Shown one piece after another: positions 2,801 to 53,352 of a DNA stretch of 64,000 bases (position 1 is its first letter; each line of letters starts with the position of its first letter). The DNA comes from Henricia sp. BOLD:AAB3569 (taxonomy: Eukaryota; Echinodermata; Asteroidea; Spinulosida; Echinasteridae): assembly GCA_037783545.1 (NCBI GenBank), contig JBBELK010001560.1, positions 17,501 through 81,500 of the forward strand, in the 5' to 3' direction. The notes under the pieces were generated by a model. The model saw only the letters and a list, made by a program, of their open reading frames with translations, did not search any database and had not been told where the DNA came from. The translations under genes and the position numbers were made by a program.

Positions 2801-2803
2801 CAC

Positions 2804-2897
2804 CACATGCAGTTCTTGCAGTCTCCATCATCCGAAAAATAGCACTCGGACAGCATGTACAAATGTGCGCAACCAAATCTAATGTCATTGAGTTCAT
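2804..2897 (-). other. Exon-like cassette 1 (minus strand)
   Basis: Read on the minus strand, the order is a branch-point-like GACTAAC, a pyrimidine-rich tract ending in CTGTGTAG, a 94-nt open segment, and a donor-like G|GTGCGT. One frame gives a cysteine-rich peptide (pieces: FGCAHLYMLSECYF, DDGDCKNCMW). I do not recognise the family. The splice signals resemble those of the cassettes further right, which suggests duplicated exons of one gene or non-coding transcript. This could still be chance. Confidence 0.35.
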
Positions 2898-21900: not shown

Positions 21901-22972
21901 ACTGTTCTGTCTTTTTCTGTTTGCAGTCTCCTAGAATCTTCATTTTTAGTAAAAATAATAAACATTTACCTTTTCTTTGGCCAAATTTCATGAACTGCAA
22001 CAGTAAATTTGTTTGTACATCGACCGCGATATGATTGCCGCCATGGGCCGTTATTTTTTCTACATTACTTTTTTCTACGTTACAATGACGTTGGGCCGAT
22101 GATCTGCCAACATTATAAATCAAACAGAAATGCCGACCATGGACGTTGTGCCAACATGGATGTGTCAACACGAAAAGTTGAGCACGGTGCCGACATGAAA
22201 CACACGTTGGCCCAACATCAAATCTCAACCAATGGCCAACTGCGACGTGTGCCGACGTTCCCGACCAACAGCCAACGTTGGCCCGACGTCGTGGTGTTAT
22301 CAGGGACACTTTGGTCTGTTTTTTGACACTTTGGTCGTAATTGGTATTTTTGAACTCGCCTTTCGATGCTGATTCCGCAAATAGCACACATAGTCAGTTT
22401 CGGCCATTTTGGAAAAAGTGTCATTTTTGACACTTTGGTCTGTTTTTTGACACTTTGGTCGTAATTGGTATTTTTGAACTCGCCTTTCGCCGCTGATTCC
22501 GAAAATATTACACATGGTCAGTTTCGGCCATTTTAGAAAAAGTGTCATTTTTGACACTTTGGTCTGTTTTTTGACACTTTGGTCGTAATTGGTATTTTTG
22601 AACTCGCCTTTCGATGCTGATTCCGCAAATAGCACACATAGTCAGTTTCGGCCATTATGGAAAAAGTGTCATTTTTGACACTTTGGTCTGTTTTTTGACA
22701 CTTTGGTCGTAATTGGTATTTTTGAACTCGCCTTTCGCCGCTGATTCCGAAAATAGCACACATGGTCAGTTTCGGCCATTTTAGAAAAAGTGTCATTTTT
22801 GACACTTTGGTCTGTTTTTTGACACTTTGGTCGTAATTGGTATTTTTGAACTCGCCTTTCGATGCTGATTCCGCAAATAGCACACATAGTCAGTTTCGGC
22901 CATTTTGGAAAAAGTGTCATTTTTGACACTTTGGTCTGTTTTTTGACACTTTGGTCGTAATTGGTATTTTTG
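18925..22972. repeat. Second copy of a 4.05-kb tandem duplication
   Basis: The sequence repeats 14267-18310 at a spacing of 4658 bp (4662 after the poly-G tract). It covers most of element 1, its right terminus (ending 22305) and the first five satellite units. By eye the copies are virtually identical; the clear difference is the G run at about 15967 (10 G) against 20625 (14 G). The left breakpoint joins satellite GATTCCG to the A run before GAAGCTTATAATAG. The left terminus of element 1 is not included. The nested hAT-like MITE reappears at 19580-19836. Confidence 0.95.
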
Positions 22973-25900: not shown

Positions 25901-26786
25901 CACGAATGGTCAGTTTCGGCCATTTTGGACAAAAACTGACCAGTATTCAGTTTTGGTCGGACGATGTCCAAAGTGGTATTTTTGAACTCGCCTGTCGACG
26001 CCGATTCCGAAAATACCACGAATGGTCAGTTTCGGCCATTTTGGACAAAAAATGACCAGTATTCAGTTTTGGTCGGACGGTGTCCATAGTGGTATTTTTG
26101 AACTCGCCTGTCGACACTGATTCCGAAAACACCACGAATGGTCAGTTTCGGCCATTTTGGACAAAAAAATGACCAGTATTCAGTTTTGGTCGGACGGTGT
26201 CTAAAGTGGTATTTTTGAACTCGCCTCGCGACGCCGATTCCGAAAATACCACGAATGGTCAGTTTCGGCCATTTTGGACAAAAACTGACCAGTATTCAGT
26301 TTTGGTCGGACGGTGTCCAAAGTGGTATTTTTGAACTCGGCTGTCGACGCTGATTCCGAAAATACCACGAATGGTCAGTTTCGGCCATTTTGGACAAAAA
26401 CTGACCAGTATTCAGTTTTGGTCGGACGATGTCCAAAGTGGTATTTTTGAACTCGCCTGTCGACGCCGATTCCGAAAATACCACGAATGGTCAGTTTCGG
26501 CCATTTTGGACAAAAAAATGACCAGTATTCAGTTTTGGTCGGACGATGTCCAAAGTGGTATTTTTGAACTCGCCTTTCGATGCCGATTCCGAAAATACCA
26601 CACATGGTCAGTTTCGGCCATTTTGAAAAAAAAATGACCAGTATTCAGTTTTGGTCGGACGGTGTCCAAAGTGGTATTTTTGAACTCGCCTTTCGATACC
26701 GATTCCGAAAATACCACACATGGTTAGTTTCGGCCATTTTGAAAAAAAAATGACCAGTATTCAGTTTTGGTCGGACGGTGTCCAAA
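22306..26786 (+). repeat. Satellite 1, main array with three unit lengths
   Basis: The 124-bp dimers (22306-22962) are followed by a 104-bp form with GTCGACTTTGACACTTTGGT (about 22963-23523, 208-bp dimers), then mixed 124- and 116-bp units (23523-25360), then a 116-bp array with a 464-bp four-unit higher-order repeat (25367-25830 and 25831-26294). The last unit breaks at GTGTCCAAA (26786) against the element 2 fragment. Confidence 0.95.
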
Positions 26787-30766: not shown

Positions 30767-31782
30767 AGTTGGAACTAAGGTTGGAACCAAGGTTCAAAGT
30801 TGGAACCAAGGTTGGAACCAAGACTCCAAGTTGGAACCAAGGTTGGAACCAAGGTTATAGGTTGGAACAAAGGTTGGAACAAAGGTTGGAACAAAGGTTG
30901 GAACAAAGGTTGGAACAAAGGTTGGAACAAAGGTTGGAACAAAGGTTGGAACAAAGGTTGGAATAAAGGTTCCAAGTTAGAACCAAGGTTGGAACCAAGG
31001 TTCCAAGGTTGGAACCAAGGTTCCAAGTTTGGAACAAAGGTTCCAAGGTTGGAACCAAGGTTCCAAGGTTGGAACCAAGGTTCCAAGGTTGGAACCAAGG
31101 TTCCAAGGTTGGAACCAAGGTTCCAAGGTTGGAACCAAGGTTCCAAGGTTGGAACCAAGGTTCCAAGGTTGGAACCAAGGTTCCAAGGTTGGAACCAAGG
31201 TTCCAAGGTTGGAACCAAGGTTGGAACCAAGGTTGGAACCAAGGTTGGAACCAAGGTTGGAACCAAGGTTGGAACCAAGGTTGGAACCAAGGTTCCAAGT
31301 TGGAACTAAGGTTGGAACCAAGGTTCCAAGTTGGAACAAAGGTTGGAACAAAGGTTGGAACAAAGGTTGGAACAAAGGTTCCAAGTTGGAACCAAGGTTG
31401 GAACCAAGGTTCCAAGGTTAGAACCAAGGTTAGAACCAAGGTTAGAACCAAGGTTAGAACCAAGGTTAGAACCAAGGTTAGAACCAAGGTTAGAACCAAG
31501 GTTAGAACCAAGGTTAGAACCAAGGTTAGAACCAAGGTTAGAACCAAGGTTAGAACCAAGGTTAGAACCAAGGTTAGAACCAAGGTTAGAACCAAGGTTA
31601 GAACCAAGGTTAGAACCAAGGTTAGAACCAAGGTTAGAACCAAGGTTAGAACCAAGGTTAGAACCAAGGTTAGAACCAAGGTGTTAGAACCAAGGTTAGA
31701 ACCAAGGTTAGAACCAAGGTTAGAACCAAGGTGTTAGAACCAAGGTTAGAACCAAGGTTGGAACCAAGGTTGGAACCAATGT
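30767..31782 (+). repeat. 12-mer minisatellite block B with three subtypes
   Basis: The block shows stepwise subtypes: GGTTGGAACAAA (about 30860-30970), a 20-bp form GGTTCCAAGGTTGGAACCAA (31000-31210), plain 12-mers (31210-31410), and GGTTAGAACCAA (31418-31770, about 29 near-identical copies). Two GTGTTAGAACC slips occur at 31681 and 31732. Homogeneous subtype blocks indicate recent local amplification. The frames of 118 to 274 aa here are repeat read-through. Confidence 0.95.
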
Positions 31783-31783
31783 T

Positions 31784-31972
31784 GAAACTGTGCAGAAACT
31801 GTGCAGAAACTGTGCAGAAACTGTGCACAAACTGTGCACAAACTGTGCACAAACTGTGCACAAACTGTGCACAAACTGTGCACAAACTGTGCACAAACTG
31901 TGCACAAACTGTGCACAAACTGTGCACAAACTGTGCACAAACTGTGCACAAACTGTGCACAAACTGTGCACA
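31784..31972 (+). repeat. 11-bp minisatellite CTGTGCACAAA
   Basis: Seventeen or so copies; the first three read CTGTGCAGAAA. The unit contains the palindrome TGTGCACA. Compared with the complement of the neighbouring 9-mer (CTGTGCAAA) it differs only by an inserted CA. Confidence 0.95.
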
Positions 31973-32022
31973 TGGTCAGTTTCGGCCATTTTGGAAAAAA
32001 ACTGACCAGTAGTCAGTTTTGG
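31968..32022 (+). repeat. Satellite 1 fragment between two minisatellites
   Basis: CACATGGTCAGTTTCGGCCA through CAGTTTTGGT is a 55-bp slice of the 116-bp satellite unit. Its left junction uses the shared GCACA and its right junction uses the shared TTGGTTGGAACC/TTTTGGT overlap. Confidence 0.9.
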
Positions 32023-32387
32023 TTGGAACCAAGGTTCCAAGTTGGAACCAAGGTTAGTTGGAACCAAGGTTGGAACCAAGGTTCCAAGTTGGAATTAAGG
32101 TTGGAACCAAGGTTTCAAGTTGGAACCAAGGTTGGAACCAAGGTTCGGAGTTTAAACTAAGGTTGGAACTAAGGTTGGAATCAAGATTCCAAAGTTGGAA
32201 CCAAGGTTTCAAGTTGGAACCAAGGTTGGAACCAAGGTTCGGAGTTTAAACTAAGGTTGGAACTAAGGTTGGAATCAAGATTCCAAAGTTGGAACCAAGG
32301 TTCCAACTTGAAACCAAGGTTGGAACCAAGGTTCCAACTTGAAAGCAAGGTTGGAACCAAGGTTCCAAGTTGGAACCAAGGAGGGGA
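32023..32387 (+). repeat. 12-mer minisatellite block C
   Basis: Degenerate 12-mer units with CGGAGTTTAAACTAAGG insertions; the segment around 32115-32185 is repeated at 32205-32285. It ends GAACCAAGGAGGGGAG, where the composite array begins. Confidence 0.9.
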
Positions 32388-35300
32388 GTTTGCACAGTTT
32401 GCACAGTTTGCACAGTTTGCACAGTTTGCACAGTTTGCACAGTTTGCACAGTTTGCACAGTTTGCACAGTTTGCACAGTTTGCACAGTTTGCACAGTTTG
32501 CACAGTTTGCACAGTTCGGGGGCGGGGAGGAGGGGGCGGGGGCGGGGAGGAGGGGAGTTCGCACAGTTTGCACAGTTTGCACAGTTTGCACAGTTTGCAC
32601 AGTTTGCACAGTTTGCACAGTTTGCACAGTTTGCACAGTTTGCACAGTTTGCACAGTTTGCACAGTTTGCACAGTTTGCACAGTTTGCACAGTTTGCACA
32701 GTTTGCACAGTTTGCACAGTTTGCACAGTTTGCACAATTCGCACAGTTTGCACAGTTGGCACAGTTGGCACAGTTTTGCGGGGAGGAGGGGGCGGGGCGG
32801 GGAGGAGGGGGCGGGGGCGGGGAGGAGGGGGCGGGGGCGGGGAGGAGGGGGCGGGGGCGGGGAGGAGGGGAGTTTGCACAGTTTGCACAGTATGCACAGT
32901 TTGCACAGTTTGCACAGTTCGCACAGTTTGCACAGTTTGCACAGTTTGCACAGTTTGCACAGTTCGCACAGTTTGCACAGTTTGCACAGTTTGCACAGTT
33001 TGCACAGTTTGCACAGTTTGCACAGTTTGCACAGTTTGCACAGTTTGCACAGTTTGCACAGTTTGCACAGTTTGCACAGTTTGCACAGTTTGCACAGTTT
33101 GCACAGTTTGCACAGTTTGCACAGTTTGCACAGTTTGCACAGTTTGCACAGTTTGCACAGTTTGCACAGTTTGCACAGTTTGCACAGTTTGCACAGTTTG
33201 CACAGTTTGCACAGTTTGCGGGGAGGAGGGGGCGGGGAGGAGGGGGCGGGGGCGGGGAGGAGGGGGCGGGGGCGGGGAGGAGGGGAGTTTGCACAGTTTG
33301 CACAGTTTGCACAGTTTGCACAGTTTGCACAGTTTGCACAGTTTGCACAGTTTGCACAGTTTGCACAGTTTGCACAGTTTGCACAGTTTGCACAGTTTGC
33401 ACAGTTTGCACAGTTTGCACAGTTTGCACAGTTTGCGGGGAGGAGGGGGCGGGGAGGCGGGGGCGGGGAGGAGGGGAGTTTGCACAGTTTGCACAGTTTG
33501 CACAGTTTGCACAGTTTGCACAGTTTGCACAGTTTGCACAGTTTGCACAGTTTGCACAGTTTGCACAGTTTGCACAGTTTGCACAGTTTGCACAGTTTGC
33601 ACAGTTTGCACAGTTTGCACAGTTTGCACAGTTTGCACAGTTTGCACAGTTTGCACAGTTTGCACAGTTTGCACAGTTTGCACAGTTTGCACAGTTTGCA
33701 CAGTTTGCACAGTTTGCACAGTTTGCACAGTTGGCACAGTTTGCACAGTTTTGCGGGGAGGAGGGGGCGGGGGCGGGGAGGAGGGGGCGGGGGCGGGGAG
33801 GAGGGGGCGGGGGCGGGGAGGAGGGGAGTTTGCACAGTTTGCACAGTATGCACAGTTTGCACAGTTTGCACAGTTTGCACAGTTTGCACAGTTTGCACAG
33901 TTTGCACAGTTTGCACAGTTTGCACAGTTTGCACAGTTTGCACAGTTTGCACAGTTTGCACAGTTTGCACAGTTTGCACAGTTTGCACAGTTTGCACAGT
34001 TCGCACAGTTTGCACAGTTGGCACAGTTGGCACAGTTTTGCGGGGAGGAGGGGGCGGGGCGGGGAGGAGGGGGCGGGGGCGGGGAGGAGGGGGCGGGGGC
34101 GGGGAGGAGGGGGCGGGGGCGGGGAGGAGGGGAGTTTGCACAGTTTGCACAGTATGCACAGTTTGCACAGTTTGCACAGTTCGCACAGTTTGCACAGTTT
34201 GCACAGTTTGCACAGTTTGCACAGTTCGCACAGTTTGCACAGTTTGCACAGTTTGCACAGTTTGCACAGTTTGCACAGTTTGCACAGTTTGCACAGTTTG
34301 CACAGTTTGCACAGTTTGCACAGTTTGCACAGTTTGCACAGTTTGCACAGTTTGCACAGTTTGCACAGTTTGCACAGTTTGCACAGTTTGCACAGTTTGC
34401 ACAGTTTGCACAGTTTGCACAGTTTGCACAGTTTGCACAGTTTGCACAGTTTGCGGGGAGGAGGGGGCGGGGGCGGGGAGGAGGGGAGTTTGCACAGTTT
34501 GCACAGTTCGCACAATTCGCACAGTTTGCACAGTTTGCGGGGAGGAGGGGGCGGGGGCGGGGAGGAGGGGGCGGGGGGCGGGGAGGAGGGGGCGGGGGCG
34601 GGGAGGAGGGGAGTTTGCACAGTTTGCACAGTTTGCACAGTTTGCACAGTTTGCACAGTTTGCACAGTTTGCACAGTTTGCACAGTTTGCACAGTTTGCA
34701 CAGTTTGCACAGTTTGCACAGTTTGCACAGTTTGCACAGTTTGCACAGTTTGCACAGTTTGCACAGTTTGCACAGTTTGCACAGTTTGCACAGTTTGCAC
34801 AGTTCGGGGGCGGGGAGGAGGGGGCGGGGGCGGGGAGGAGGGGAGTTCGCACAGTTTGCACAGTTTGCACAGTTTGCACAGTTTGCACAGTTTGCACAGT
34901 TTGCACAGTTTGCACAGTTTGCACAGTTTGCACAGTTTGCACAGTTTGCACAGTTTGCACAGTTTGCACAGTTTGCACAGTTTGCACAGTTTGCACAGTT
35001 TGCACAGTTTGCACAGTTTGCACAATTCGCACAGTTTGCACAGTTGGCACAGTTGGCACAGTTTTGCGGGGAGGAGGGGGCGGGGGCGGGGAGGAGGGGG
35101 CGGGGGCGGGGAGGAGGGGGCGGGGGCGGGGAGGAGGGGGCGGGGGCGGGGAGGAGGGGAGTTTGCACAGTTTGCACAGTATGCACAGTTTGCACAGTTT
35201 GCACAGTTCGCACAGTTTGCACAGTTTGCACAGTTTGCACAGTTTGCACAGTTCGCACAGTTTGCACAGTTTGCACAGTTTGCACAGTTTGCACAGTTTG

Positions 35301-38300
35301 CACAGTTTGCACAGTTTGCACAGTTTGCACAGTTTGCACAGTTTGCACAGTTTGCACAGTTTGCACAGTTTGCACAGTTTGCACAGTTTGCACAGTTTGC
35401 ACAGTTTGCACAGTTTGCACAGTTTGCACAGTTTGCGGGGAGGAGGGGGCGGGGAGGAGGGGGCGGGGGCGGGGAGGAGGGGGCGGGGGCGGGGAGGAGG
35501 GGAGTTTGCACAGTTTGCACAGTTCGCACAATTCGCACAGTTTGCACAGTTTGCGGGGAGGAGGGGGCGGGGGCGGGGAGGAGGGGGCGGGGGGCGGGGA
35601 GGAGGGGGCGGGGGCGGGGAGGAGGGGAGTTTGCACAGTTTGCACAGTTTGCACAGTTTGCACAGTTTGCACAGTTTGCACAGTTTGCACAGTTTGCACA
35701 GTTTGCACAGTTTGCACAGTTTGCACAGTTTGCACAGTTTGCACAGTTTGCACAGTTTGCACAGTTTGCACAGTTTGCACAGTTTGCACAGTTTGCACAG
35801 TTTGCGGGGAGGAGGGGGCGGGGAGGCGGGGGCGGGGAGGAGGGGAGTTTGCACAGTTTGCACAGTTTGCACAGTTTGCACAGTTTGCACAGTTTGCACA
35901 GTTTGCACAGTTTGCACAGTTTGCACAGTTTGCGGGGAGGAGGGGGCGGGGGCGGGGAGGAGGGGGCGGGGGCGGGGAGGAGGGGAGTTTGCACAGTTTG
36001 CACAGTTTGCACAGTTTGCACAGTTTGCACAGTTTGCACAGTTTGCACAGTTTGCACAGTTTGCACAGTTTGCACAGTTTGCACAGTTTGCACAGTTTGC
36101 ACAGTTTGCACAGTTTGCACAGTTTGCACAGTTTGCACAGTTTGCACAGTTTGCACAGTTTGCACAGTTTGCACAGTTTGCACAGTTTGCACAGTTGGCA
36201 CAGTTTGCACAGTTTGCACAGTTTGCACAGTTTGCACAGTTTGCACAGTTGGCACAGTTTGCACAGTTTTGCGGGGAGGAGGGGGCGGGGGCGGGGAGGA
36301 GGGGGCGGGGGCGGGGAGGAGGGGGCGGGGGCGGGGAGGAGGGGAGTTTGCACAGTTTGCACAGTATGCACAGTTTGCACAGTTTGCACAGTTTGCACAG
36401 TTTGCACAGTTTGCACAGTTTGCACAGTTTGCACAGTTTGCACAGTTTGCACAGTTTGCACAGTTTGCACAGTTTGCACAGTTTGCACAGTTTGCACAGT
36501 TTGCACAGTTTGCACAATTCGCACAGTTTGCACAGTTGGCACAGTTGGCACAGTTTTGCGGGGAGGAGGGGGCGGGGCGGGGAGGAGGGGGCGGGGGCGG
36601 GGAGGAGGGGGCGGGGGCGGGGAGGAGGGGGCGGGGGCGGGGAGGAGGGGAGTTTGCACAGTTTGCACAGTATGCACAGTTTGCACAGTTTGCACAGTTC
36701 GCACAGTTTGCACAGTTTGCACAGTTTGCACAGTTTGCACAGTTCGCACAGTTTGCACAGTTTGCACAGTTTGCACAGTTTGCACAGTTTGCACAGTTTG
36801 CACAGTTTGCACAGTTTGCACAGTTTGCACAGTTTGCACAGTTTGCACAGTTTGCACAGTTTGCACAGTTTGCACAGTTTGCACAGTTTGCACAGTTTGC
36901 ACAGTTTGCACAGTTTGCACAGTTTGCACAGTTTGCACAGTTTGCGGGGAGGAGGGGGCGGGGAGGAGGGGGCGGGGGCGGGGAGGAGGGGGCGGGGGCG
37001 GGGAGGAGGGGAGTTTGCACAGTTTGCACAGTTCGCACAATTCGCACAGTTTGCGGGGAGGAGGGGGCGGGGGCGGGGAGGAGGGGGCGGGGGGCGGGGA
37101 GGAGGGGGCGGGGGCGGGGAGGAGGGGAGTTTGCACAGTTTGCACAGTTTGCACAGTTTGCACAGTTTGCACAGTTTGCACAGTTTGCACAGTTTGCACA
37201 GTTTGCACAGTTTGCACAGTTTGCACAGTTTGCACAGTTTGCACAGTTTTGCGGGGAGGAGGGGGCGGGGCGGGGAGGAGGGGGCGGGGGCGGGGAGGAG
37301 GGGGCGGGGGCGGGGAGGAGGGGGCGGGGGCGGGGAGGAGGGGAGTTTGCACAGTTTGCACAGTATGCACAGTTTGCACAGTTTGCACAGTTCGCACAGT
37401 TTGCACAGTTTGCACAGTTTGCACAGTTTGCACAGTTCGCACAGTTTGCACAGTTTGCACAGTTTGCACAGTTTGCACAGTTTGCACAGTTTGCACAGTT
37501 TGCACAGTTTGCACAGTTTGCACAGTTTGCACAGTTTGCACAGTTTGCACAGTTTGCACAGTTTGCACAGTTTGCACAGTTTGCACAGTTTGCACAGTTT
37601 GCACAGTTTGCACAGTTTGCACAGTTTGCACAGTTTGCACAGTTTGCACAGTTTGCACAGTTTGCACAGTTTGCACAGTTTGCACAGTTTGCACAGTTTG
37701 CACAGTTTGCACAGTTTGCACAGTTTGCACAGTTTGCACAGTTTGCACAGTTTGCACAGTTTGCACAGTTTGCACAGTTTGCACAGTTTGCGGGGAGGAG
37801 GGGGCGGGGAGGAGGGGGCGGGGGCGGGGAGGAGGGGGCGGGGGCGGGGAGGAGGGGAGTTTGCACAGTTTGCACAGTTCGCACAATTCGCACAGTTTGC
37901 ACAGTTTGCGGGGAGGAGGGGGCGGGGGCGGGGAGGAGGGGGCGGGGGGCGGGGAGGAGGGGGCGGGGGCGGGGAGGAGGGGAGTTTGCACAGTTTGCAC
38001 AGTTTGCACAGTTTGCACAGTTTGCACAGTTTGCACAGTTTGCACAGTTTGCACAGTTTGCACAGTTTGCACAGTTTGCACAGTTTGCACAGTTTGCACA
38101 GTTTGCACAGTTTGCACAGTTTGCACAGTTTGCGGGGAGGAGGGGGCGGGGAGGCGGGGGCGGGGAGGAGGGGAGTTTGCACAGTTTGCACAGTTTGCAC
38201 AGTTTGCACAGTTTGCACAGTTTGCACAGTTTGCACAGTTTGCGGGGAGGAGGGGGCGGGGGCGGGGAGGAGGGGGCGGGGGCGGGGAGGAGGGGAGTTT

Positions 38301-41300
38301 GCACAGTTTGCACAGTTTGCACAGTTTGCACAGTTTGCACAGTTTGCACAGTTTGCGGGGAGGAGGGGGCGGGGGCGGGGAGGAGGGGGCGGGGGGCGGG
38401 GAGGAGGGGGCGGGGGCGGGGAGGAGGGGAGTTTGCACAGTTTGCACAGTTTGCACAGTTTGCACAGTTTGCACAGTTTGCACAGTTTGCACAGTTTGCA
38501 CAGTTTGCACAGTTTGCACAGTTTGCACAGTTTGCACAGTTTGCACAGTTTGCACAGTTTGCACAGTTTGCACAGTTTGCGGGGAGGAGGGGGCGGGGGC
38601 GGGGAGGAGGGGGCGGGGGGCGGGGAGGAGGGGGCGGGGGCGGGGAGGAGGGGAGTTTGCACAGTTTGCACAGTTTGCACAGTTTGCACAGTTTGCACAG
38701 TTTGCACAGTTTGCACAGTTTGCACAGTTTGCACAGTTTGCACAGTTTGCACAGTTTGCACAGTTTGCACAGTTTGCACAGTTTGCACAGTTTGCACAGT
38801 TTGCACAGTTTGCACAGTTCGGGGGCGGGGAGGAGGGGGCGGGGGCGGGGAGGAGGGGAGTTCGCACAGTTTGCACAGTTTGCACAGTTTGCACAGTTTG
38901 CACAGTTTGCACAGTTTGCACAGTTTGCACAGTTTGCACAGTTTGCACAGTTTGCACAGTTTGCACAGTTTGCACAGTTTGCACAGTTTGCACAGTTTGC
39001 ACAGTTTGCACAGTTTGCACAGTTTGCACAGTTTGCACAGTTTGCACAGTTGGCACAGTTGGCACAGTTTTGCGGGGAGGAGGGGGCGGGGGCGGGGAGG
39101 AGGGGGCGGGGGCGGGGAGGAGGGGGCGGGGGCGGGGAGGAGGGGGCGGGGGCGGGGAGGAGGGGAGTTTGCACAGTTTGCACAGTATGCACAGTTTGCA
39201 CAGTTTGCACAGTTCGCACAGTTTGCACAGTTTGCACAGTTTGCACAGTTTGCACAGTTTGCACAGTTTGCACAGTTTGCACAGTTTGCACAGTTTGCAC
39301 AGTTTGCACAGTTTGCACAGTTTGCACAGTTTGCACAGTTTGCACAGTTTGCACAGTTTGCACAGTTTGCACAGTTTGCACAGTTTGCACAGTTTGCACA
39401 GTTTGCACAGTTTGCACAGTTTGCACAGTTTGCACAGTTTGCACAGTTTGCACAGTTTGCACAGTTTGCGGGGAGGAGGGGGCGGGGAGGAGGGGGCGGG
39501 GGCGGGGAGGAGGGGGCGGGGGCGGGGAGGAGGGGAGTTTGCACAGTTTGCACAGTTCGCACAATTCGCACAGTTTGCACAGTTTGCGGGGAGGAGGGGG
39601 CGGGGGCGGGGAGGAGGGGGCGGGGGGCGGGGAGGAGGGGGCGGGGGCGGGGAGGAGGGGAGTTTGCACAGTTCGCACAGTTTGCACAGTTTGCACAGTT
39701 TGCACAGTTTGCACAGTTTGCACAGTTTGCACAGTTTGCACAGTTTGCACAGTTTGCACAGTTTGCACAGTTTGCACAGTTTGCACAGTTTGCACAGTTT
39801 GCACAGTTTGCACAGTTTGCACAGTTTGCGGGGAGGAGGGGGCGGGGAGGCGGGGGCGGGGAGGAGGGGAGTTTGCACAGTTTGCACAGTTTGCACAGTT
39901 TGCACAGTTTGCACAGTTTGCACAGTTTGCACAGTTTGCACAGTTTGCACAGTTTGCACAGTTTGCGGGGAGGAGGGGGCGGGGGCGGGGAGGAGGGGGC
40001 GGGGGCGGGGAGGAGGGGAGTTTGCACAGTTTGCACAGTTTGCACAGTTTGCACAGTTTGCACAGTTTGCACAGTTTGCACAGTTTGCACAGTTTGCACA
40101 GTTTGCACAGTTTGCACAGTTTGCACAGTTTGCACAGTTTGCACAGTTTGCACAGTTTGCACAGTTTGCACAGTTTGCACAGTTTGCACAGTTTGCACAG
40201 TTTGCACAGTTTGCACAGTTTGCACAGTTTGCACAGTTTGCACAGTTGGCACAGTTGGCACAGTTTGCACAGTTTTGCGGGGAGGAGGGGGCGGGGGCGG
40301 GGAGGAGGGGGCGGGGGCGGGGAGGAGGGGGCGGGGGCGGGGAGGAGGGGAGTTTGCACAGTTTGCACAGTATGCACAGTTTGCACAGTTTGCACAGTTT
40401 GCACAGTTTGCACAGTTTGCACAGTTTGCACAGTTTGCACAGTTTGCACAGTTTGCACAGTTTGCACAGTTTGCACAGTTTGCACAGTTTGCACAGTTTG
40501 CACAGTTTGCACAGTTTGCACAGTTTGCACAGTTTGCACAGTTTGCACAGTTTGCACAGTTTGCACAGTTTGCACAGTTTGCACAGTTTGCACAGTTTGC
40601 ACAGTTTGCACAATTCGCACAATTCGCACAGTTTGCACAGTTGGCACAGTTGGCACAGTTTTGCGGGGAGGAGGGGGCGGGGCGGGGAGGAGGGGGCGGG
40701 GGCGGGGAGGAGGGGGCGGGGGCGGGGAGGAGGGGGCGGGGGCGGGGAGGAGGGGAGTTTGCACAGTTTGCACAGTATGCACAGTTTGCACAGTTTGCAC
40801 AGTTCGCACAGTTTGCACAGTTTGCACAGTTTGCACAGTTTGCACAGTTCGCACAGTTTGCACAGTTTGCACAGTTTGCACAGTTTGCACAGTTTGCACA
40901 GTTTGCACAGTTTGCACAGTTTGCACAGTTTGCACAGTTTGCACAGTTTGCACAGTTTGCACAGTTTGCACAGTTTGCACAGTTTGCACAGTTTGCGGGG
41001 AGGAGGGGGCGGGGAGGAGGGGGCGGGGGCGGGGAGGAGGGGGCGGGGGGCGGGGAGGAGGGGGCGGGGGCGGGGAGGAGGGGAGTTTGCACAGTTTGCA
41101 CAGTTTGCACAGTTTGCACAGTTTGCACAGTTTGCACAGTTTGCACAGTTTGCACAGTTTGCACAGTTTGCACAGTTTGCACAGTTTGCACAGTTTGCAC
41201 AGTTTGCACAGTTTGCACAGTTTGCACAGTTTGCACAGTTTGCACAGTTTGCACAGTTTGCACAGTTTGCACAGTTTGCACAGTTTGCACAGTTTGCACA

Positions 41301-42218
41301 GTTTGCACAGTTTGCACAGTTTGCACAGTTTGCACAGTTTGCACAGTTTGCACAGTTTGCACAGTTTGCACAGTTTGCACAGTTTGCACAGTTTGCACAG
41401 TTTGCACAGTTGGCACAGTTTGCACAGTTGGCACAGTTGGCACAGTTGGCACAGTTTTGCGGGGAGGAGGGGGCGGGGCGGGGAGGAGGGGGCGGGGGCG
41501 GGGAGGAGGGGGCGGGGGCGGGGAGGAGGGGAGTTTGCACAGTTTGCACAGTATGCACAGTTTGCACAGTTCGCACAGTTTGCACAGTTTGCACAGTTTG
41601 CACAGTTCGCACAGTTTGCACAGTTTGCACAGTTTGCACAGTTTGCACAGTTCGCACAGTTTGCACAGTTTGCACAGTTTGCACAGTTCGCACAGTTCGC
41701 ACAGTTTGCACAGTTTGCACAGTTTGCACAGTTTGCACAGTTTGCACAGTTTGCACAGTTTGCACAGTTTGCACAGTTTGCACAGTTTGCACAGTTGGCA
41801 CAGTTGGCACAGTTTGCACAGTTTTGCGGGGAGGAGGGGGCGGGGGCGGGGAGGAGGGGGCGGGGGCGGGGAGGAGGGGGCGGGGGCGGGGAGGAGGGGG
41901 CGGGGAGGAGGGGAGTTCGCACAGTTTGCACAGTTTGCACAGTTTGCACAGTTTGCACAGTTTGCACAGTTTGCACAGTTTGCACAGTTTGCACAGTTTG
42001 CACAGTTTGCACAGTTTGCACAGTTTGCACAGTTTGCACAGTTTGCACAGTTTGCACAGTTCGCACAGTTTGCACAGTTTGCACAGTTTGCACAGTTTGC
42101 ACAGTTTGCACAGTTTGCACAGTTTGCACAGTTTGCACAGTTTGCACAGTTTGCACAGTTTGCACAGTTTGCACAGTTTGCACAGTTTGCACAGTTTGCA
42201 CAGTTTGCACAGTTTGCA
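32388..42218 (+). repeat. 9.8-kb composite array: TTTGCACAG blocks and G-rich blocks
   Basis: Tandem 9-mers (TTTGCACAG; blocks of about 5 to 60 units) alternate with about 36 G-rich blocks of 40-100 bp built from CGGGGAGGAGGGGG and CGGGGG. Block edges carry fixed variants. After many G-blocks the third 9-mer is TATGCACAG (near 32890, 33847, 34151, 35178, 36367, 36670, 37367, 39187, 40370, 40775, 41550). Before many G-blocks come TTGGCACAG pairs and TTTTGCGGGG, or TTCGCACAATTCGCACAG. These markers define higher-order units. Neither component contains a stop triplet on either strand, so all six frames are open for more than 3,000 codons; no gene is implied. Confidence 0.97.
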
Positions 42219-43200
42219 AACTTTGGTTCCAACCTTGGTTCCAACCTTGGTTCCAACCTCATTCCAACCTTGGTTGCAACTTGGAACCTTGGTTTCAACT
42301 TGGAACCTTGGTTTCAACTTTGGTTCCAACTTCGAACCTTGGTTCGAACCTTGGTTCCACCTTGGTTCCAACCTTGGTTCCAACTTGGAACCTTGATTCC
42401 ACCTTGGTTCCAACTTTGGTTCCAACTTTGGTTCCAACTTTGGTTCCAACCTTGGTTCCAACTTTGGTTCCAACTTTGGTTCCAACCTTGGTTCCAACTT
42501 TGGTTCCAACTTTGGTTCCAACCTTGGTTCCAACCTTGGTTCCAACCTTGGTTCCAACCTTGGTTCCAACCTTGGTTCCAACCTTGGTTCCAACCTTGGT
42601 TCCAACCTTGGTTCCAACCTTGGTTCCAACCTTGGTTCCAACCTTGGTTCCAACCTTGGTTCCAACCTTGGTTCCAACCTTGGTTCCAACCTTGGTTCCA
42701 ACCTTGGTTCCAACCTTGGTTCCAACCTTGGTTCCAACCTTGGTTCCAACCTTGGTTCCAACCTTGGTTCCAACCTTGGTTTCAACCTTGGTTCCAACCT
42801 TGGTTCTAACCTCATTCCAACCTTGGTTGCAACTTGGAACCTTGGTTTCAACTTGGAACCTTGGTTTCAACTTTGGTTCCAACTTCGAACCTTGGTTCGA
42901 ACCTTGGTTCCACCTTGGTTCCAACCTTGGTTCCAACTTTGGTTCCAACTTTGGTTCCAACTTTGGTTCCAACCTTGGTTCCAACCTTGGTTCCAACCTT
43001 GGTTCCAACCTTGGTTCCAACCTTGGTTCCAACCTTGGTTCCAACCTTGGTTCCAACCTTGGTTCCAACCTTGGTTCCAACCTTGGTTCCAACCTTGGTT
43101 CCAACCTTGGTTCCAACCTTGGTTCCAACCTTGGTTCCAACCTTGGTTCCAACCTTGGTTCCAACCTTGGTTCCAACCTTGGTTCCAACCTTGGTTCCAA
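42219..43200 (-). repeat. 12-mer minisatellite block D (reverse orientation)
   Basis: Units read CCAACCTTGGTT. Two copies of a marked segment with CTCATTCCAACC, CTTGGTTTCAACTTGGAACC and CTTCGAACCTTGGTTCGAAC lie at 42257-42370 and 42809-42920, so a block of about 550 bp was duplicated. Confidence 0.95.
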
Positions 43201-44090
43201 GTTGGAACCAAGGTTAGAACCAAGGTTCCAAGTTGGAACCAAGGTTGGAACCAAGGTTGGAACAAAAGTTGGAACCAAAGTTGGAACCAAAGTTGGAACC
43301 AAAGTTGGAACCAAAGTTGGAACCAAAGTTGGAACCAAAGTTGGAACCAAGGTTGGAACCAAGGTTCTAAGTTGGAACCAAGGTTGGAACCAAGGTTCCA
43401 AGTTGGAATGAGGTTGGAACCAAAGTTGGAACCAAGGTTCCAAGTTGGAACCAAGGTTGGAACCAAGGTTCCAAAATGAAATAAGGTTGGAACCAAGGTT
43501 CCAAGTTGGAACCAAAGTTCCAAGTTGGAACCAAAGTTAGAACCAAAGTTGGAACCAAGGTTGGAACCAAAGTTAGAACCAAAGTTGGAACCAAGGTTGG
43601 AACCAAGGTTCCAAGTTGGAATGAGGTTGGAACCAAAGTTGGAACCAAGGTTCCAAGTTGGAACCAAGGTTGGAACCAAGGTTCCAAAATGAAATAAGGT
43701 TGGAACCAAGGTTCCAAGTTGGAACCAAAGTTCCAAGTTGGAACCAAAGTTAGAACCAAAGTTGGAACCAAGGTTGGAACCAAAGTTAGAACCAAAGTTG
43801 GAACCAAAGTTGGAACCAAGGTTCCAAGTTTGAACCAAGGTTGGAACCAAGGTTCCAAGTTGGAACCAAGGTTGGAACCAAGGTTTCAAGTTAGAATGAG
43901 GTTGGAACTACAGTTCCAAGTTGGAACCAAAGTTGGAACCAAAGTTAGAACAAAAGTTGGAACCAAAGTTGGAACCAAAGTTGGAACCAAGGTTGGAACC
44001 AAGGTTCTAAGTTGGAACCAAGGTTGGAACCAAGGTTCCAAGTTGGAATGAGGTTGGAACCAAAGTTCCAAGTTAGAACCAAAGTTGGAA
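43201..44090 (+). repeat. 12-mer minisatellite block E (forward)
   Basis: Orientation flips at about 43200 (TTGGTTCCAAGTTGGAACCAA). A 213-bp segment containing the landmark CCAAAATGAAATAAGG is repeated in tandem (43470 and 43683). Confidence 0.95.
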
Positions 44091-44289
44091 CCGGGGGGCG
44101 GGGAGGAGGGGGCGGGGGAGGAGGGGGCGGGGCGGGGAGGAGGGGGCGGGGAGGAGGGGGCGGTGGCGGGGAGGAGGGGACGGGGGCGGGGAGGAGGGGG
44201 GCGGGGGCGGGGAGGAGGGGGAGGAGGGGGCGGGGATGAGGGGACGGGGCGGGGAGGAGGGGGCGGGGCGGGGAGGAGGGGGCGGGGAG
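44091..44289 (+). repeat. Isolated G-rich block
   Basis: About 200 bp of CGGGGAGGAGGGGG modules like those of the composite array, but with no 9-mers beside it. It lies exactly where the 12-mer array flips orientation. Confidence 0.95.
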
Positions 44290-44783
44290 GTTCCAACTGT
44301 GGTTCCAACTGTGGTTCCAACTTTGGTTCAAACTTTGGTTCCAACCTTGGTTCCAACCTTGGTTCCAACCGTGGTTCCAACTGTGGTTCCAACTTTGGTT
44401 CAAACTTTGGTTTCAACCTTGGTTCCAACCTTGGTTCTAACCTCATTCCAACCTTGGTTGCAACTTGGAACCTTGGTTTCAACTTGGAACCTTGGTTTCA
44501 ACTTTGGTTCCAACTTCGAACCTTGGTTCGAACCTTGGTTCCACCTTGGTTCCAACCTTGGTTCCAACTTTGGTTCCAACTTTGGTTCCAACTTTGGTTC
44601 CAACCTTGGTTCCAACCTTGGTTCCAACCTTGGTTCCAACCTTGGTTCCAACCTTGGTTCCAACCTTGGTTCCAACCTTGGTTCCAACCTTGGTTCCAAC
44701 CTTGGTTCCAACCTTGGTTCCAACCTTGGTTCCAACCTTGGTTCCAACCTTGGTTCCAACATTGGTTCCAACCTTGGTTCCAA
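44290..44783 (-). repeat. 12-mer minisatellite block F (reverse)
   Basis: CCAACCTTGGTT units; repeats the CTCATTCCAACC...TTCGAACC segment of block D at 44442-44550. Flips back to forward near 44783. Confidence 0.95.
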
Positions 44784-47700
44784 GTTGGAACCAAAGTTAG
44801 AACCAAAGTTGGAACCAAAGTTGGAACCAAGGTTAGAACCAAGGTTCCAAGTTGGAACCAAGGTTGGAACCAAGGTTGGAACAAAAGTTGGAACCAAAGT
44901 TGGAACCAAAGTTGGAACCAAAGTTGGAACCAAGGTTGGAACCAAGGTTCTAAGTTGGAACCAAGGTTGGAACCAAGGTTCCAAGTTGGAATGAGGTTGG
45001 AACCAAAGTTGGAACCAAGGTTCCAAGTTGGAACCAAGGTTGGAACCAAGGTTCCAAAATGAAATAAGGTTGGAACCAAGGTTCCAAGTTGGAACCAAAG
45101 TTCCAAGTTGGAACCAAAGTTAGAACCAAAGTTGGAACCAAGGTTGGAACCAAAGTTAGAACCAAAGTTGGAACCAAAGTTGGAACCAAAGTTGGAACCA
45201 AAGTTCCAGGTTGGAACCAAGGTTGGAACCAAGGTTCCAGGTTGGAACCAAGGTCCAAAGTTGGAACCAAAGTTGGAACCAAAGTTGGAACCAAAGTTGG
45301 AACCAAGTTGGAACCAAGGTTGGAACCAAGGTTTCAAGTTAGAATGAGGTTGGAACCAAAGTTCCAAGTTGGAACCAAAGTTGGAACCAAAGTTAGAACA
45401 AAAGTTGGAACCAAAGTTGGAACCAAAGTTGGAACCAAGGTTGGAACCAAGGTTCTAAGTTGGAACCAAGGTTGGAACCAAGGTTCCAAGTTGTAATGAG
45501 GTTGGAACCAAAGTTCCAAGTTAGAACCAAAGTTGGAACCAAGGTTGGAACCAAGGTTGGAACCAAAGTTGGAACCAAGGTTGGAACCAAGGTTGGACCA
45601 AAGGTTGGAACCAAGGTTGGAACCAAGGTTGGAACCAAGGTTGGAACCAAGGTTGGAACCAAGGTTGGAACCAAGGTTGGAACCAAGGTTGGAACCAAGG
45701 TTGGAACCAAGGTTGGAACCAAGGTTGGAACCAAGGTTGGAACCAAGGTTGGAACCAAGGTTCCAAAATGAAATAAGGTTAGAACCAAGGTTCCAAGTTG
45801 GAACCAAGGTTCCAAGTTGGAACCAAAGTTCCAAGTTGGAACCAAAGTTGGAACCAAAGTTGGAACAAGGTTGGAACCAAAGTTAGAACCAAAGTTGGAA
45901 CCAAAGTTGGAACCAAGGTTGGAACCAAGGTTCCAAGTTGGAACCAAGGTTGGAACAAAAGTTGGAACAAAAGTTGGAACCAAAGTTGGAACCAAAGTTG
46001 GAACCAAAGTTGGAACCAAGGTTGGAACCAAGGTTCTAAGTTGGAACCAAGGTTGGAACCAAGGTTCCAAGTTGGAATGAGGTTGGAACCAAAGTTGGAA
46101 CCAAGGTTCCAAGTTGGAACCAAGGTTGGAACCAAGGTTCCAAAATGAAATAAGGTTGGAACCAAGGTTCCAAGTTGGAACCAAAGTTCCAAGTTGGAAC
46201 CAAAGTTAGAACCAAAGTTGGAACCAAGGTTGGAACCAAAGTTAGAACCAAAGTTGGAACCAAGGTTGGAACCAAGGTTCCAAGTTGGAATGAGGTTGGA
46301 ACCAAAGTTGGAACCAAGGTTCCAAGTTGGAACCAAGGTTGGAACCAAGGTTCCAAAATGAAATAAGGTTGGAACCAAGGTTCCAAGTTGGAACCAAAGT
46401 TCCAAGTTGGAACCAAAGTTAGAACCAAAGTTGGAACCAAGGTTGGAACCAAAGTTAGAACCAAAGTTGGAACCAAAGTTGGAACCAAAGTTGGAACCAA
46501 AGTTCCAGGTTGGAACCAAGGTTGGAACCAAGGTTCCAGGTTGGAACCAAGGTCCAAAGTTGGAACCAAAGTTGGAACCAAAGTTGGAACCAAAGTTGGA
46601 ACCAAGTTGGAACCAAGGACCAAGGTTTCAAGTTAGAATGAGGTTGGAACCAAAGTTCCAAGTTGGAACCAAAGTTGGAACCAAAGTTAGAACAAAAGTT
46701 GGAACCAAAGTTGGAACCAAAGTTGGAACCAAGGTTGGAACCAAGGTTCTAAGTTGGAACCAAGGTTGGAACCAAGGTTCCAAGTTGTAATGAGGTTGGA
46801 ACCAAAGTTCCAAGTTAGAACCAAAGTTGGAACCAAGGTTGGAACCAAGGTTGGAACCAAAGTTGGAACCAAGGTTGGAACCAAAGTTGGAACCAAAGTT
46901 GGAACCAAAGTTGGAACCAAAGTTGGAACCAAAGTTGGAACCAAAGTTGGAACCAAAGTTGGAACCAAAGTTCCAGGTTGGAACCAAGGTTGGAACCAAG
47001 GTTCCAATTTGGAACCAAAGTTGGAACCAAGGTTCCAAGTTGGAACCAAAGTTGGAACCAAGGTTGGAACCAAGGTTGGAACCAAGGTTCCAAGTTGGAA
47101 CCAAAGTTCCAAGTTGGAACCAAAGTTAGAACCAAAGTTGGAACCAAGGTTGAAACCAAAGTTAGAACCAAAGTTGGAACCAAAGTTGGAACCAAAGTTG
47201 AAACCAAGGTTCCAAGTTGAAACCAAAGTTGAAACCAAGGTTCCAAGTTAGAACCAAGGTTGGAACCAAGGTTCCAAGTTGGAACCAAAGTTGGAACCAA
47301 AGTTGGAACCAAAGTTCCAGGTTGGAACCAAGGTTGGAACCAAGGTTCCAGGTTGGAACCAAGGTCCAAAGTTGGAACCAAAGTTGGAACCAAAGTTGGA
47401 ACCAAAGTTGGAACCAAGTTGGAACCAAGGACCAAGGTTTCAAGTTAGAATGAGGTTGGAACCAAAGTTCCAAGTTGGAACCAAAGTTGGAACCAAAGTT
47501 AGAACAAAAGTTGGAACCAAAGTTGGAACCAAAGTTGGAACCAAGGTTGGAACCAAGGTTCTAAGTTGGAACCAAGGTTGGAACCAAGGTTCCAAGTTGT
47601 AATGAGGTTGGAACCAAAGTTCCAAGTTAGAACCAAAGTTGGAACCAAGGTTGGAACCAAGGTTGGAACCAAAGTTGGAACCAAGGTTGGAACCAAAGTT

Positions 47701-48473
47701 GGAACCAAAGTTGGAACCAAAGTTGGAACCAAAGTTGGAACCAAAGTTGGAACCAAAGTTGGAACCAAAGTTCCAGGTTGGAACCAAGGTTGGAACCAAG
47801 GTTCCAATTTGGAACCAAAGTTGGAACCAAGGTTCCAAGTTGGAACCAAAGTTGGAACCAAGGTTGGAACCAAGGTTGGAACCAAGGTTGGAACCAAGGT
47901 TCCAAGTTGGAACCAAAGTTCCAAGTTGGAACCAAAGTTAGAACCAAAGTTGGAACCAAGGTTGAAACCAAAGTTAGAACCAAAGTTGGAACCAAAGTTG
48001 GAACCAAAGTTGAAACCAAGGTTCCAAGTTGAAACCAAAGTTGAAACCAAGGTTCCAAGTTAGAACCAAGGTTGGAACCAAGGTTCCAAGTTGGAACCAA
48101 GGTTGGAACCAAGGTTATAAGTTGGAACCAAGGTTCCAAGTTGAAACCAAAGTTAGAACCAAAGTTGGAACCAAAGTTGGAACCAAAGTTGGAACCAAAG
48201 TTGGAACCAAGGTTGGAACCAAGGTTCCAAGTTGGAACCAAAGTTGGAACCAAGGTTGGAACCAAAGTTGGATCCAAGGTTGGAACCAAGGTTGGAACCA
48301 AGGTTGGAACCAAGGTTGGAACCAAGGTTCCAAAATGAAATAAGGTTAGAACCAAGGTTCCAAGTTGGAACCAAGGTTCCAAGTTGGAACCAAAGTTCCA
48401 AGTTGGAACCAAAGTTGGAACCAAAGTTGGAACAAGGTTGGAACCAAGGTTGGAACCAAGGTTGGAACCAAGT
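44784..48473 (+). repeat. 12-mer minisatellite block G (forward) with nested duplications
   Basis: A mixture of AAGGTTGGAACC and AAAGTTGGAACC subtypes. An 812-bp tandem duplication covers about 46620-47433 and 47432-48245, and a further relative of its left part lies at 45330. A 213-bp duplication is at 46140 and 46353. The landmark CCAAAATGAAATAAGG recurs near 45057, 45765, 46140, 46354 and 48329. Frames up to 325 aa are read-through. Confidence 0.95.
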
Positions 48474-50957
48474 TATTTTTGAACTCGTCTTTTGACGCTG
48501 ATTCCGAAAATACCACGAATGGTCAGTTTCGGCCATTTTGTAAAAAAACTGACCACTATTTAGTTTTCGTCGGACGGTGTCCAAAGTGGTATTTTTCAAC
48601 TCGCCTTTCGCCGCTGATCCCGAAAATACCACGAATGGTAAGTTTCGGCCATTTTGGAAAAAAAATGAACAGTATTTAGTTTTGGTCGGACGGTGTCCAA
48701 AGTGGTATTTTTAAACTCGCCTTTCGACGCTGATTACGAAAATACCACACCTGGTCAGTTTCGGCCATTTTTGAAAAAACTGACCACTATTTAGTTTTGG
48801 TCGGACGGTGTCTAAAGTGGTATTTTTGAACTCGTCTTTCGCCGCTGATTCTGAAAATACCACGAATCGTCAGTTTCGGCCAATTTGGGAAAAAACTGAC
48901 CAGTATTCAGTTTTGGTCGGACGGTGTCCAAAGTGGTATTTTAATATTTTTGAACTCGCCTTTCGACGCTGATTACGAAAATTCCACACATGGTCAGTTT
49001 CGGCCATTTTGGAAAAAAAGTGAACACTATTCAGTTTTGGTCGGACGGTGTCCAAAGTGGTGTTTTTGAACTCGCCTGTAGACGCTGATTCCGAAAATAC
49101 CACACATAGTCAGTTTCGGCCATTTTGGAAAAACTGACCACTATTCAGTTTTGGTCGGACGGTGTCCAAAGTGGTATTTTTGACCTCGCTTTTTGACGCT
49201 AATTCCGAAAATACCACACTTAGTCAGTTTCGGCCATTTTGAAAAAAAAATGACCACTATTCAGTTTTGGTCGGACGGTGTCCAAAGTGGTATTTTTGAA
49301 CTCGCCTGTCGACGCTGATTCCGAAAATACCACACATGGTCAGTTTCGGCCATTTTGGAAAAAAACTGAACACTATTCAGTTTTGGTCGGACGGTGTCCA
49401 AAGTGGTATTTTTGAACTCGCATTTCGACGCTGATTCCGAAAATACCACACATGGTCAGTTTCGGCCATTATAGAAAAAACTGACCACTATTTAGTTTTG
49501 GTTGGACGGTATCCAAAGTGGTATTTTTGAACTCGCCTCTCGACGCTGATTCCGAAAATACCACACATGGTCAGTTTCGGCCATTTTGGAAAAAAACTGA
49601 ACACTATTCAGTTTTGGTCGGACGGTATCCAAAGTGGTATTTTTGAACTCGCCTGTCGACGCTGATTCCGAAAATACCACACATGGTCAGTTTCGGCCAT
49701 TTTGGAAAAAAACCTGACCACTATTTAGTTTTGGTCGGACGGTATCCAAGGTGGTATTTTTGAACTCGCCTGACGACGCTGATTCCGAAAATACCACACA
49801 TGGTCAGTTTCGGCCATTTTTGAAAAAAAATGACCAGTATTCAGTTTGGGTCGGACGGTGTCCAAAGTGGTATTTTTGAACTCGCCTTTCGACGCTGATT
49901 CCGAAAATACCACACATGGTTTCGGCCATTTTGGGAAAAAAATGACCACTATTTAGTTTTGGTTGGACGGTATCCAAAGTGGTATTTTTGAACTCGCCTC
50001 TCGACGCTGATTCCGAAAATACCACACATGGTCAGTTTCGGCCATTTTGGAAAAAAACTGAACACTATTCAGTTTTGGTCGGACGGTGTCCAAAGTGGTA
50101 TTTTTGAACTCGCCTGTCGACGCTGATTCCGAAAATACCACACATGGTCAGTTTCGGCCATTTTGGAAAAAAAACTGACCACTATTTAGTTTTGGTCGGA
50201 CGGTATCCAAGGTGGTATTTTTGAACTCGCCTGACGACGCTGATTCCGAAAATACCACACATGGTCAGTTTTGGCCATTTTGGAAAAAAAACTGACCACT
50301 ATTTAGTTTTGGTCGGACGGTGTCCAAGGTGGTATTTTTGAACTCGCCTGACGACGCTGATTCCGAAAATACCACACATGGTCAGTTTTGGCCATTTTGG
50401 AAAAAAAAATGACCACTATTTAGTTTTGGTCGGACGGTGTCCAAAGTGTTATTTTTTAACTCTCCTTTGGACGCTGATTCCGCAAATACCACACATGGTC
50501 AGTTTCGGCCATTTTGGAAAAAACTGACCAGTATTCAGTTTGGGTCGGACGGTGTCCAAAGTGGTATTTTTGAACTCGCCTGTCGACGCTGATTCAGAAA
50601 ATACCACACATGGTCAGTTTCGGCCATTTTGGGAAAAAAACTGACCACTATTCAGTTTTGGTCGGACGGTGTCCAAGGTGGTTTTTTGAACTCGCCTGTC
50701 GACGCTGATTCCGAAATTACCACACATGGTCAGTTTCGGCCATTTTGGAAAAAAACTGACCACTATTCAGTTTTGGTCGGACGGTGTCCAAAGTGGTATT
50801 TTTGAACTCGCCTGTGGACGCTGATTACGAATATACCACACATGGTAAGTTTCGGCCATTTTGGAGAAAAAACTGACCACTATTTAGTTTTTGTCGGACG
50901 GTGTCCAAAGTGGTATTTTTGAACTTGCCTTTCGCCGCCGATTCCCAAAATACCACG
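48474..50957 (+). repeat. Satellite 1, right array (116-bp form)
   Basis: About 21 units of about 115-119 bp with CGGACGGTGTCCAAAGTGGT and TTTCGGCCATTTT. More diverged from each other than the left arrays. The left junction reads GGAACCAAG|TTATTTTTGAACTCG; the right junction is ATACCACGAACG|AACCAAC. Confidence 0.95.
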
Positions 50958-53350: not shown

Positions 53351-53352
53351 AT

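What the first reader, a model, noticed from the sequence alone, without database searches (positions are those of the whole stretch)
32388..42218. 9.8-kb composite array of 9-mers and potential G-quadruplex blocks
TTTGCACAG blocks alternate with about 36 G-rich blocks. Each G-block has many runs of four or five Gs separated by one to three bases, all on the same strand, which is ideal for G-quadruplex formation. Ordered variants at block edges (TATGCACAG, TTGGCACAG, TTCGCACAATTCGCACAG, TTTTGCGGGG) show that amplification occurred in units of several hundred bases. I know of no described satellite with this design.
Basis: partly seen in the sequence, partly recalled or inferred. Interest (0 to 1): 0.75.

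Follow-up and report, generated by a model that had tools for sequence, protein, structure and literature searches.

The report
Sea-star chromosome-end G-rich composite satellite
Near the end of a sea-star chromosome lies a long stretch of DNA in which a 9-letter repeat alternates with blocks packed with the letter G; the same design recurs near several other chromosome ends in the same direction, so it looks like an end-of-chromosome repeat that is copied between ends, of a broad kind already known in people but with an unusual two-part layout.

Summary
Window 32389-42212 holds 796 nine-base units (718 TTTGCACAG) alternating with 36 G-rich blocks of 12 sequences. All 36 are potential G-quadruplexes on one strand. 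Block order recurs far above chance (10 repeated triplets; 2,000 shuffles: mean 0.4, maximum 4).

The host is a sea star (COX1 94% to Meridiastra). The contig carries 10,000 bases of CCCTAA repeats before the window. The composite occurs on at least 12 contigs. Six of the 12 carry telomere repeats, nearest array hit within about 70 kb; in 6 of 6 the G-strand points away from the telomere. It is best read as a subtelomeric composite minisatellite, amplified locally and shared between chromosome ends.

By position and sequence it resembles human G4-forming subtelomeric minisatellites (CEB1 class); regular alternation and shared orientation are the new part. Folding and instability are untested. 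Shuffled letters of the G-blocks score as well in a G4-aware fold, so only G-richness is shown. One array (C683) is internal, two telomere tracts are not at the contig's very end, and some contigs may be haplotype copies.

The parts
32389..42212 (+). composite array: 796 9-mers and 36 G-blocks; G-rich strand is the + strand, pointing away from the telomere
   Evidence: telomere repeats before the window
32371..32388 (+). left edge: the 12-mer array ends in GGAGGGGAG, the tail of a G-block, followed by 9-mers
42213..42235 (+). right edge: TTTGCAAACTTTGGTTCC, passage from 9-mers to the 12-mer array
32587..33165 (+). example of a higher-order unit, first copy (579 bases, exact)
36367..36945 (+). 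example of a higher-order unit, second copy, 3,780 bases further
31785..31972 (-). 17 copies of an 11-mer (AAACTGTGCAC; on the other strand TTTGTGCACAG, the 9-mer with two more bases)
30768..31788 (.). flanking 12-mer array GTTGGAACCAAG, telomere side
32021..32381 (.). flanking 12-mer array, directly left of the composite
42219..48600 (.). flanking 12-mer array AACCTTGGTTCC and variants, inward side (first TRF row 42219-43200)
44092..44291 (+). orphan G-block of the same 20-mer kind inside the 12-mer array, without 9-mers
22305..26786 (.). 116-base satellite on the telomere side; relatives flank the C40 and C70 arrays
2008..2845 (-). telomere-side sequence, 98.8% identical over 838 bases to the right end of array contig C384

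Best explanation
A subtelomeric composite minisatellite of a sea star. SHOWN: two short repeats, a 9-mer TTTGCACAG and a 20-mer GGGGAGGAGGGGGCGGGGGC, alternate in long arrays with two main left junctions and one main right junction; ordered groups of blocks recur inside arrays; the same grammar occurs on at least 12 contigs; six of these carry telomere repeats, with the G-rich strand pointing inward in all six. INFERRED: one ancestral composite unit grew by unequal exchange or template switching (higher-order copies), slippage changes the number of 9-mers, and exchange between chromosome ends spread the blocks, which keeps their orientation relative to the telomere. INFERRED, less sure: the G-blocks fold into quadruplexes when forks pass toward the telomere. 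If forks come from the interior, the G-strand is the leading-strand template, the setting in which CEB1 is unstable in pif1-deleted yeast; stalls and breaks there would feed the rearrangement. No selected function is needed.
For: Structure. Higher order: repeated block triplets 10 vs mean 0.4, max 4 of 2,000 shuffles; C40 39 of 139 vs mean 0.9, max 5; exact copies 579 and 2,158 bases. Telomere: 10,000 bases of CCCTAA repeats in the same contig; C70, C131, C472, C1487, C1547. Six of 12 array contigs telomeric; chance 1.7e-9 to 3.4e-7 if 26 to 60 of 2,104 contigs are telomeric (contig length ignored). G-strand inward 6 of 6. C384: 7 of 8 hits inward, right end 98.8% identical to window 2008-2845. 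C40 and C121: inward, near their right ends. 116-base satellite beside three of four arrays read (C1560, C40, C70) and 12-mer array on the inward side of three of four (C1560, C40, C121). Private variants on the shared plan: 11 of 11 TATGCACAG-after-G-block sites and 3 of 3 TTCGGGGGC blocks lie in C1560. Literature: PMC3486850 and PMC7063842 (passages).
Against: C683 array is internal (430 of 855 kb). C384 has one hit of opposite strand. On C472 and C1487 the telomere hits end 25-30 kb before the contig end, so they might be internal tracts. Many telomere contigs were not seen to carry an array (24 telomere contigs in a list cut at 100 of 138 hits). C121 and C1547 may be one locus, and haplotype copies would reduce the number of independent ends. 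6 of 6 orientation is only p = 0.03 two-sided. Against the G4 step: shuffled letters fold as well; in this array the 9-mer runs vary (7 of 7 lengths differ) while the G-block before them has 99-100 bases in 7 of 7; human G4 minisatellites cluster at ends in either orientation (PMC3486850).
Confidence: 0.75

Rival explanations
1. A functional polar element of chromosome ends: the G-blocks are kept on the strand that is the leading template of outgoing forks, so that they slow forks, mark a subtelomere boundary, or serve as a platform for end-to-end recombination.
For: Same orientation at 6 of 6 telomere-linked arrays and inward at C40, C121 and 7 of 8 C384 hits; in this array G-blocks are copied with constant length while spacers vary.
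Against: Spread of whole subtelomere blocks keeps orientation without selection; not every telomere contig was seen to carry an array; no conservation in another species could be tested.
Confidence: 0.1
2. Independent local expansions of a common 9-mer and a common G-rich minisatellite, without exchange between ends.
For: Each array has private block sequences; 9-mer arrays almost without G-blocks exist inside C23 and C24; an orphan G-block lies at 44092-44291.
Against: The same junction words occur across arrays (left 587, right 775 in the genome) and the same edge phrases cCG and aCG precede G-blocks on several contigs; flanking satellites recur.
Confidence: 0.1
3. Assembly artefact or chimera.
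For: C121 ends inside the array and has 60 distinct blocks of 77, so repeats trouble this assembly; reads were not available.
Against: Same composite on at least 12 contigs, three of them over 1.9 Mb (C40, C70, C131) plus C121 at 2.4 Mb, with distinct variants in those read.
Confidence: 0.03
4. A protein-coding repeat gene: all six frames are open over about 10 kb.
For: Open frames of 3,314 to 3,690 codons in six frames; 73 of 84 substitutions in the 9-mers of this array fall at positions 3 and 9, third codon positions of one frame.
Against: Each frame switches between CAN, KLC and QTV repeats at the G-blocks; 41.5% of all 9-mers are stop-free in six frames when in tandem; the substitutions are four types multiplied by copying.
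Confidence: 0.01

Closest known systems
Human GC-rich, G4-forming subtelomeric minisatellites (CEB1, CEB25, HRAS1)
   Same: Tandem G-rich arrays with G4 potential, clustered near chromosome ends (313 of 504 with at least 30 G4 sequences in the terminal 10% of arms; PMC3486850, passages).
   Different: Here G-blocks alternate with an unrelated 9-mer, have higher-order structure, and the plan is shared by several ends in one orientation; the human ones lie in either orientation (same paper).
Satellites with higher-order repeats (recalled: human alpha satellite as the model case)
   Same: Ordered variants recur as multi-unit copies.
   Different: Two unlike short units instead of diverged copies of one monomer; near telomeres, not shown at a centromere.
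Human subtelomeric CpG-island repeats tied to TERRA promoters (listing and abstract beginnings only)
   Same: G-rich, CG-containing repeats in subtelomeres.
   Different: Here tens of kb from the telomere and with the G-strand facing away from it; transcription unknown.

Membership tests
G4-forming subtelomeric minisatellite (CEB1 class) | tandem GC-rich unit in a long array | tested here: met
   20-mer G units in 36 blocks
G4-forming subtelomeric minisatellite (CEB1 class) | G4 motifs | tested here: met
   36 of 36 blocks by motif and G4Hunter; sequence prediction only
G4-forming subtelomeric minisatellite (CEB1 class) | position near a chromosome end | tested here: met
   10,000 bases of telomere repeats in the same contig; 6 of 12 array contigs telomeric; C683 internal
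G4-forming subtelomeric minisatellite (CEB1 class) | folding in vitro and G4-dependent length instability | not testable with these tools
   needs bench work; shuffled-letter control shows G-richness alone suffices for the predicted fold
Higher-order-repeat satellite | recurring ordered series of distinguishable units | tested here: met
TERRA promoter repeats | directly beside the telomere tract (recalled) | tested here: not met
   array begins 32.4 kb into the window, beyond the telomere repeats
TERRA promoter repeats | transcription toward the telomere | not testable with these tools
   no transcript data
Repeat-coding gene | one reading frame kept through the repeats | tested here: not met
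   frames switch at G-blocks

The most novel reading that the evidence does not exclude
A polar subtelomeric element: one composite G-quadruplex satellite is carried by several chromosome ends, always with the G-strand as the leading template of forks heading for the telomere, and acts there as a fork-slowing and recombination platform that homogenises chromosome ends.
Probability: 0.1. Interest if true: 0.75.

Novelty: new variant of a known kind. Interest (0 to 1): 0.43.

Why it matters
It is a natural set of G4-rich arrays near several chromosome ends of one animal, in the same polarity where that could be judged, each cut into short G-blocks by a 9-mer spacer. That allows tests of whether G4 tracts drive subtelomere rearrangement and whether strand polarity is selected. 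It also gives a sequence marker for sea-star subtelomeres; my library searches (listings) showed no description of one.

Tried and rejected
Coding repeat: rejected (frames switch; stop-free 9-mers are common). Letter order tuned for G4: not supported. Chimera: unlikely. A viral link: two IMG/VR contigs hold the 27-mer. L009 shows only a short run. L010 shows about 25 units with T, C or G at position 3 and no G-blocks in the 5,280 bases held; I take both as chance or convergence, with no family search made. Telomere repeats within 50 bases of the 12-mer word: none. Passage from 11-mer to 9-mer: one place in the genome, on C802, so the 11-mer is not a regular part. C40's right end matches window 6.1-6.9 kb at up to 93%, but C23 matches there too, so it may be a dispersed repeat and I do not count it. 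Exact-repeat lengths are too short, because words seen over 60 times were skipped; one search replaces them. The paper search for the 9-mer letters gave 460 papers; I saw 10 rows, none on satellites. Searches gave no sea-star satellite in their listings.

Limits of the counts: searches list only the first 100 places, so 12 array contigs and 24 listed telomere contigs are lower bounds. For C384, C683, C1487 and C1613 only the pattern hits were seen, not the blocks. One search counts blocks of 30 to 200 bases; others were left out. One search kept at most 400 matches per query, and C121, C24 and C23 came close to that, so a missing match there is not absence. C24 (9-mers with two short G matches) is not among the 12.

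Full report
WHAT IS THERE. The described array is real and runs from 32389 to 42212: 796 nine-mers (718 TTTGCACAG) in 37 runs and 36 G-blocks of 12 distinct sequences. G-blocks are built from the 20-mer GGGGAGGAGGGGGCGGGGGC; 36 of 36 end in GGGGAGGAGGGGAG, 21 start with TTTGCGGGG, 12 with TTTTGCGGGG and 3 with TTCGGGGG. All 36 are canonical G4 motifs on the + strand. G4Hunter at 1.5 finds 39 regions in the window, 36 in the array, none on the other strand; 2,402 of 9,824 bases lie in motifs against mean 161 and maximum 344 in 50 dinucleotide shuffles. A control speaks against design: in a G4-aware fold with RNA parameters, shuffling the letters of each of the 12 distinct blocks gives about the same energy (20 shuffles each). 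The G4 potential follows from G-richness, not from letter order.

HIGHER ORDER. The order of block types recurs: 10 repeated triplets against mean 0.4 and maximum 4 in 2,000 shuffles, and in the C40 array 39 of 139 against mean 0.9 and maximum 5. Exact copies reach 579 bases here (3,780 bases apart) and 2,158 bases in C40. In this array seven runs that begin with the signature ..A..C have seven different lengths (26 to 49 units), while the G-block before them has 99 or 100 bases in 7 of 7 and the one after them 73 bases in 5 of 7. So here the 9-mer number changes faster than the G-blocks. In C40, 5 of 11 kinds of run with three or more copies have one length throughout and most others have one or a few outliers, which suggests more recent copying of large units.

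WHERE IT IS. The genome has 740.7 Mb in 2,104 contigs. Its mitochondrial COX1, read by the echinoderm code, is closest to sea stars (94% to Meridiastra gunnii; the seven best hits are sea stars by my knowledge of the names). The window lies in a 91.7-kb contig, C1560, which carries 10,000 bases of CCCTAA repeats, with few variant units, before the window, in the orientation of a left chromosome end. Some stretches of the contig read N and were not examined. The array therefore lies in a subtelomere, with its G-rich strand pointing away from the telomere.

OTHER COPIES. The 27-mer of three 9-mers occurs 9,199 times, one left junction word 587 times and one right junction word 775 times; the reversed patterns gave none. 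Arrays were placed on 12 contigs: C40, C70, C121, C131, C384, C472, C683, C728, C1487, C1547, C1560, C1613; listings were partly cut at 100 places, so there may be more. Telomere repeats lie on six of the 12: C70, C131, C472, C1487, C1547 and C1560, with the nearest array hit within about 70 kb. In all six the G-strand points away from the telomere repeats. If 26 to 60 of the 2,104 contigs are telomeric, six of 12 has a chance of 1.7e-9 to 3.4e-7, ignoring contig length. On C472 and C1487 the telomere hits stop 25 to 30 kb before the contig end, so they might be internal tracts. C384 shows 7 of 8 hits inward and its right end is 98.8% identical over 838 bases to window 2008-2845. C40 and C121 arrays lie near their right ends, also inward. 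C683 is internal (430 of 855 kb), C728 is a 50-kb contig, and the left end of C1613 could not be judged. C121 and C1547 could be parts of one locus, and haplotype copies are possible, so the number of independent ends may be below six.

FLANKS. Four loci were read (C1560, C40, C121, C70). The 116-base satellite lies beside the array in three (C1560, C40, C70), in the orientation expected from the array. The 12-mer array lies on the inward side in three (C1560, C40, C121); in C1560 it lies on both sides, and its own orientation relative to the G-strand is not constant. C728 begins with the satellite found at window 53.3-64 kb, on the side to which its G-strand points, as in C1560. Each array has private variants on the shared plan: TATGCACAG after a G-block 11 of 11 in C1560, TTCGGGGGC blocks 3 of 3 in C1560. 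This fits blocks exchanged between ends and then amplified locally.

MECHANISM. Shown: shared junctions, higher-order copies, subtelomeric position, shared orientation. Inferred: unequal exchange or template switching for the higher-order copies, slippage for the 9-mer runs, end-to-end exchange for the spread. More tentative: if forks enter from the chromosome interior, the inward-pointing G-strand is the leading template. In yeast without Pif1 the human CEB1 minisatellite is unstable only when the G4 strand is the leading template, although an RPA mutant destabilises it in both orientations; a one-base loop raises the stability of the CEB25 quadruplex together with its instability in cells (PMC7063842, passages). 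The G-blocks here have many one-base spacers. That the G-blocks are the steadier part in this array argues against a simple G4-instability model.

KNOWN KINDS. Human G4-forming minisatellites cluster near chromosome ends: 313 of 504 with at least 30 G4 sequences lie in the terminal 10% of arms, in either orientation (PMC3486850, passages). This array resembles that class in position and sequence; folding and instability are untested. Differences are the regular alternation with an unrelated 9-mer, the higher-order structure and the shared orientation. Library searches (listings) showed no such composite and no sea-star subtelomere; the A. amurensis genome paper has the word satellite once and telomere not at all in its main text (PMC11090083, passages). 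I file it as a new variant of a known kind.

VERDICT. Real, unlikely to be an artefact, subtelomeric, and shared between contigs that mostly look like chromosome ends. Best explanation 0.75. The bold reading, a polar functional element, is not excluded, but a neutral alternative fits the same data; I give it about 0.1.

Noticed in passing
15967-18310 and 20629-22972: 2,344 bases repeated exactly 4,662 bases apart, a recent tandem duplication or an assembly repeat.
   Followed up: partly
17643-18848, 22305-26786, 48830-51450: A satellite of about 116-124 bases that also flanks arrays on C40 and C70.
   Followed up: partly
53300-64000 and on to the contig end: AT-rich tandem repeat with a best period of about 330 bases; also found at the left end of C728.
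   Followed up: partly
5661-5993: Reverse-transcriptase fragment (PF00078, E 3.1e-10); the other 8 of 9 pieces scanned had no Pfam match.
   Followed up: partly
546-2076: AT-rich 14-mer array (TTAACGTAGAAAAT), shared with the right end of C384; a possible subtelomere marker.
   Followed up: partly
32181-43411: Six overlapping open frames of 3,314 to 3,690 codons; explained by stop-free units, 41.5% of 9-mers being so.
   Followed up: yes
L010 434-663: About 25 copies of the same 9-mer with T, C or G at position 3 in a contig labelled viral (IMG/VR), without G-blocks.
   Followed up: partly
L061 (C472 right end), L053 (C1613 9001-9600): Degenerate GTTAAC-rich sequence at or near contig ends, resembling a scrambled terminal repeat or low-quality sequence.
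   Followed up: no
contig C955: COX1 found three times 16,221 bases apart, as if the mitochondrial genome were assembled three times in a row.
   Followed up: no
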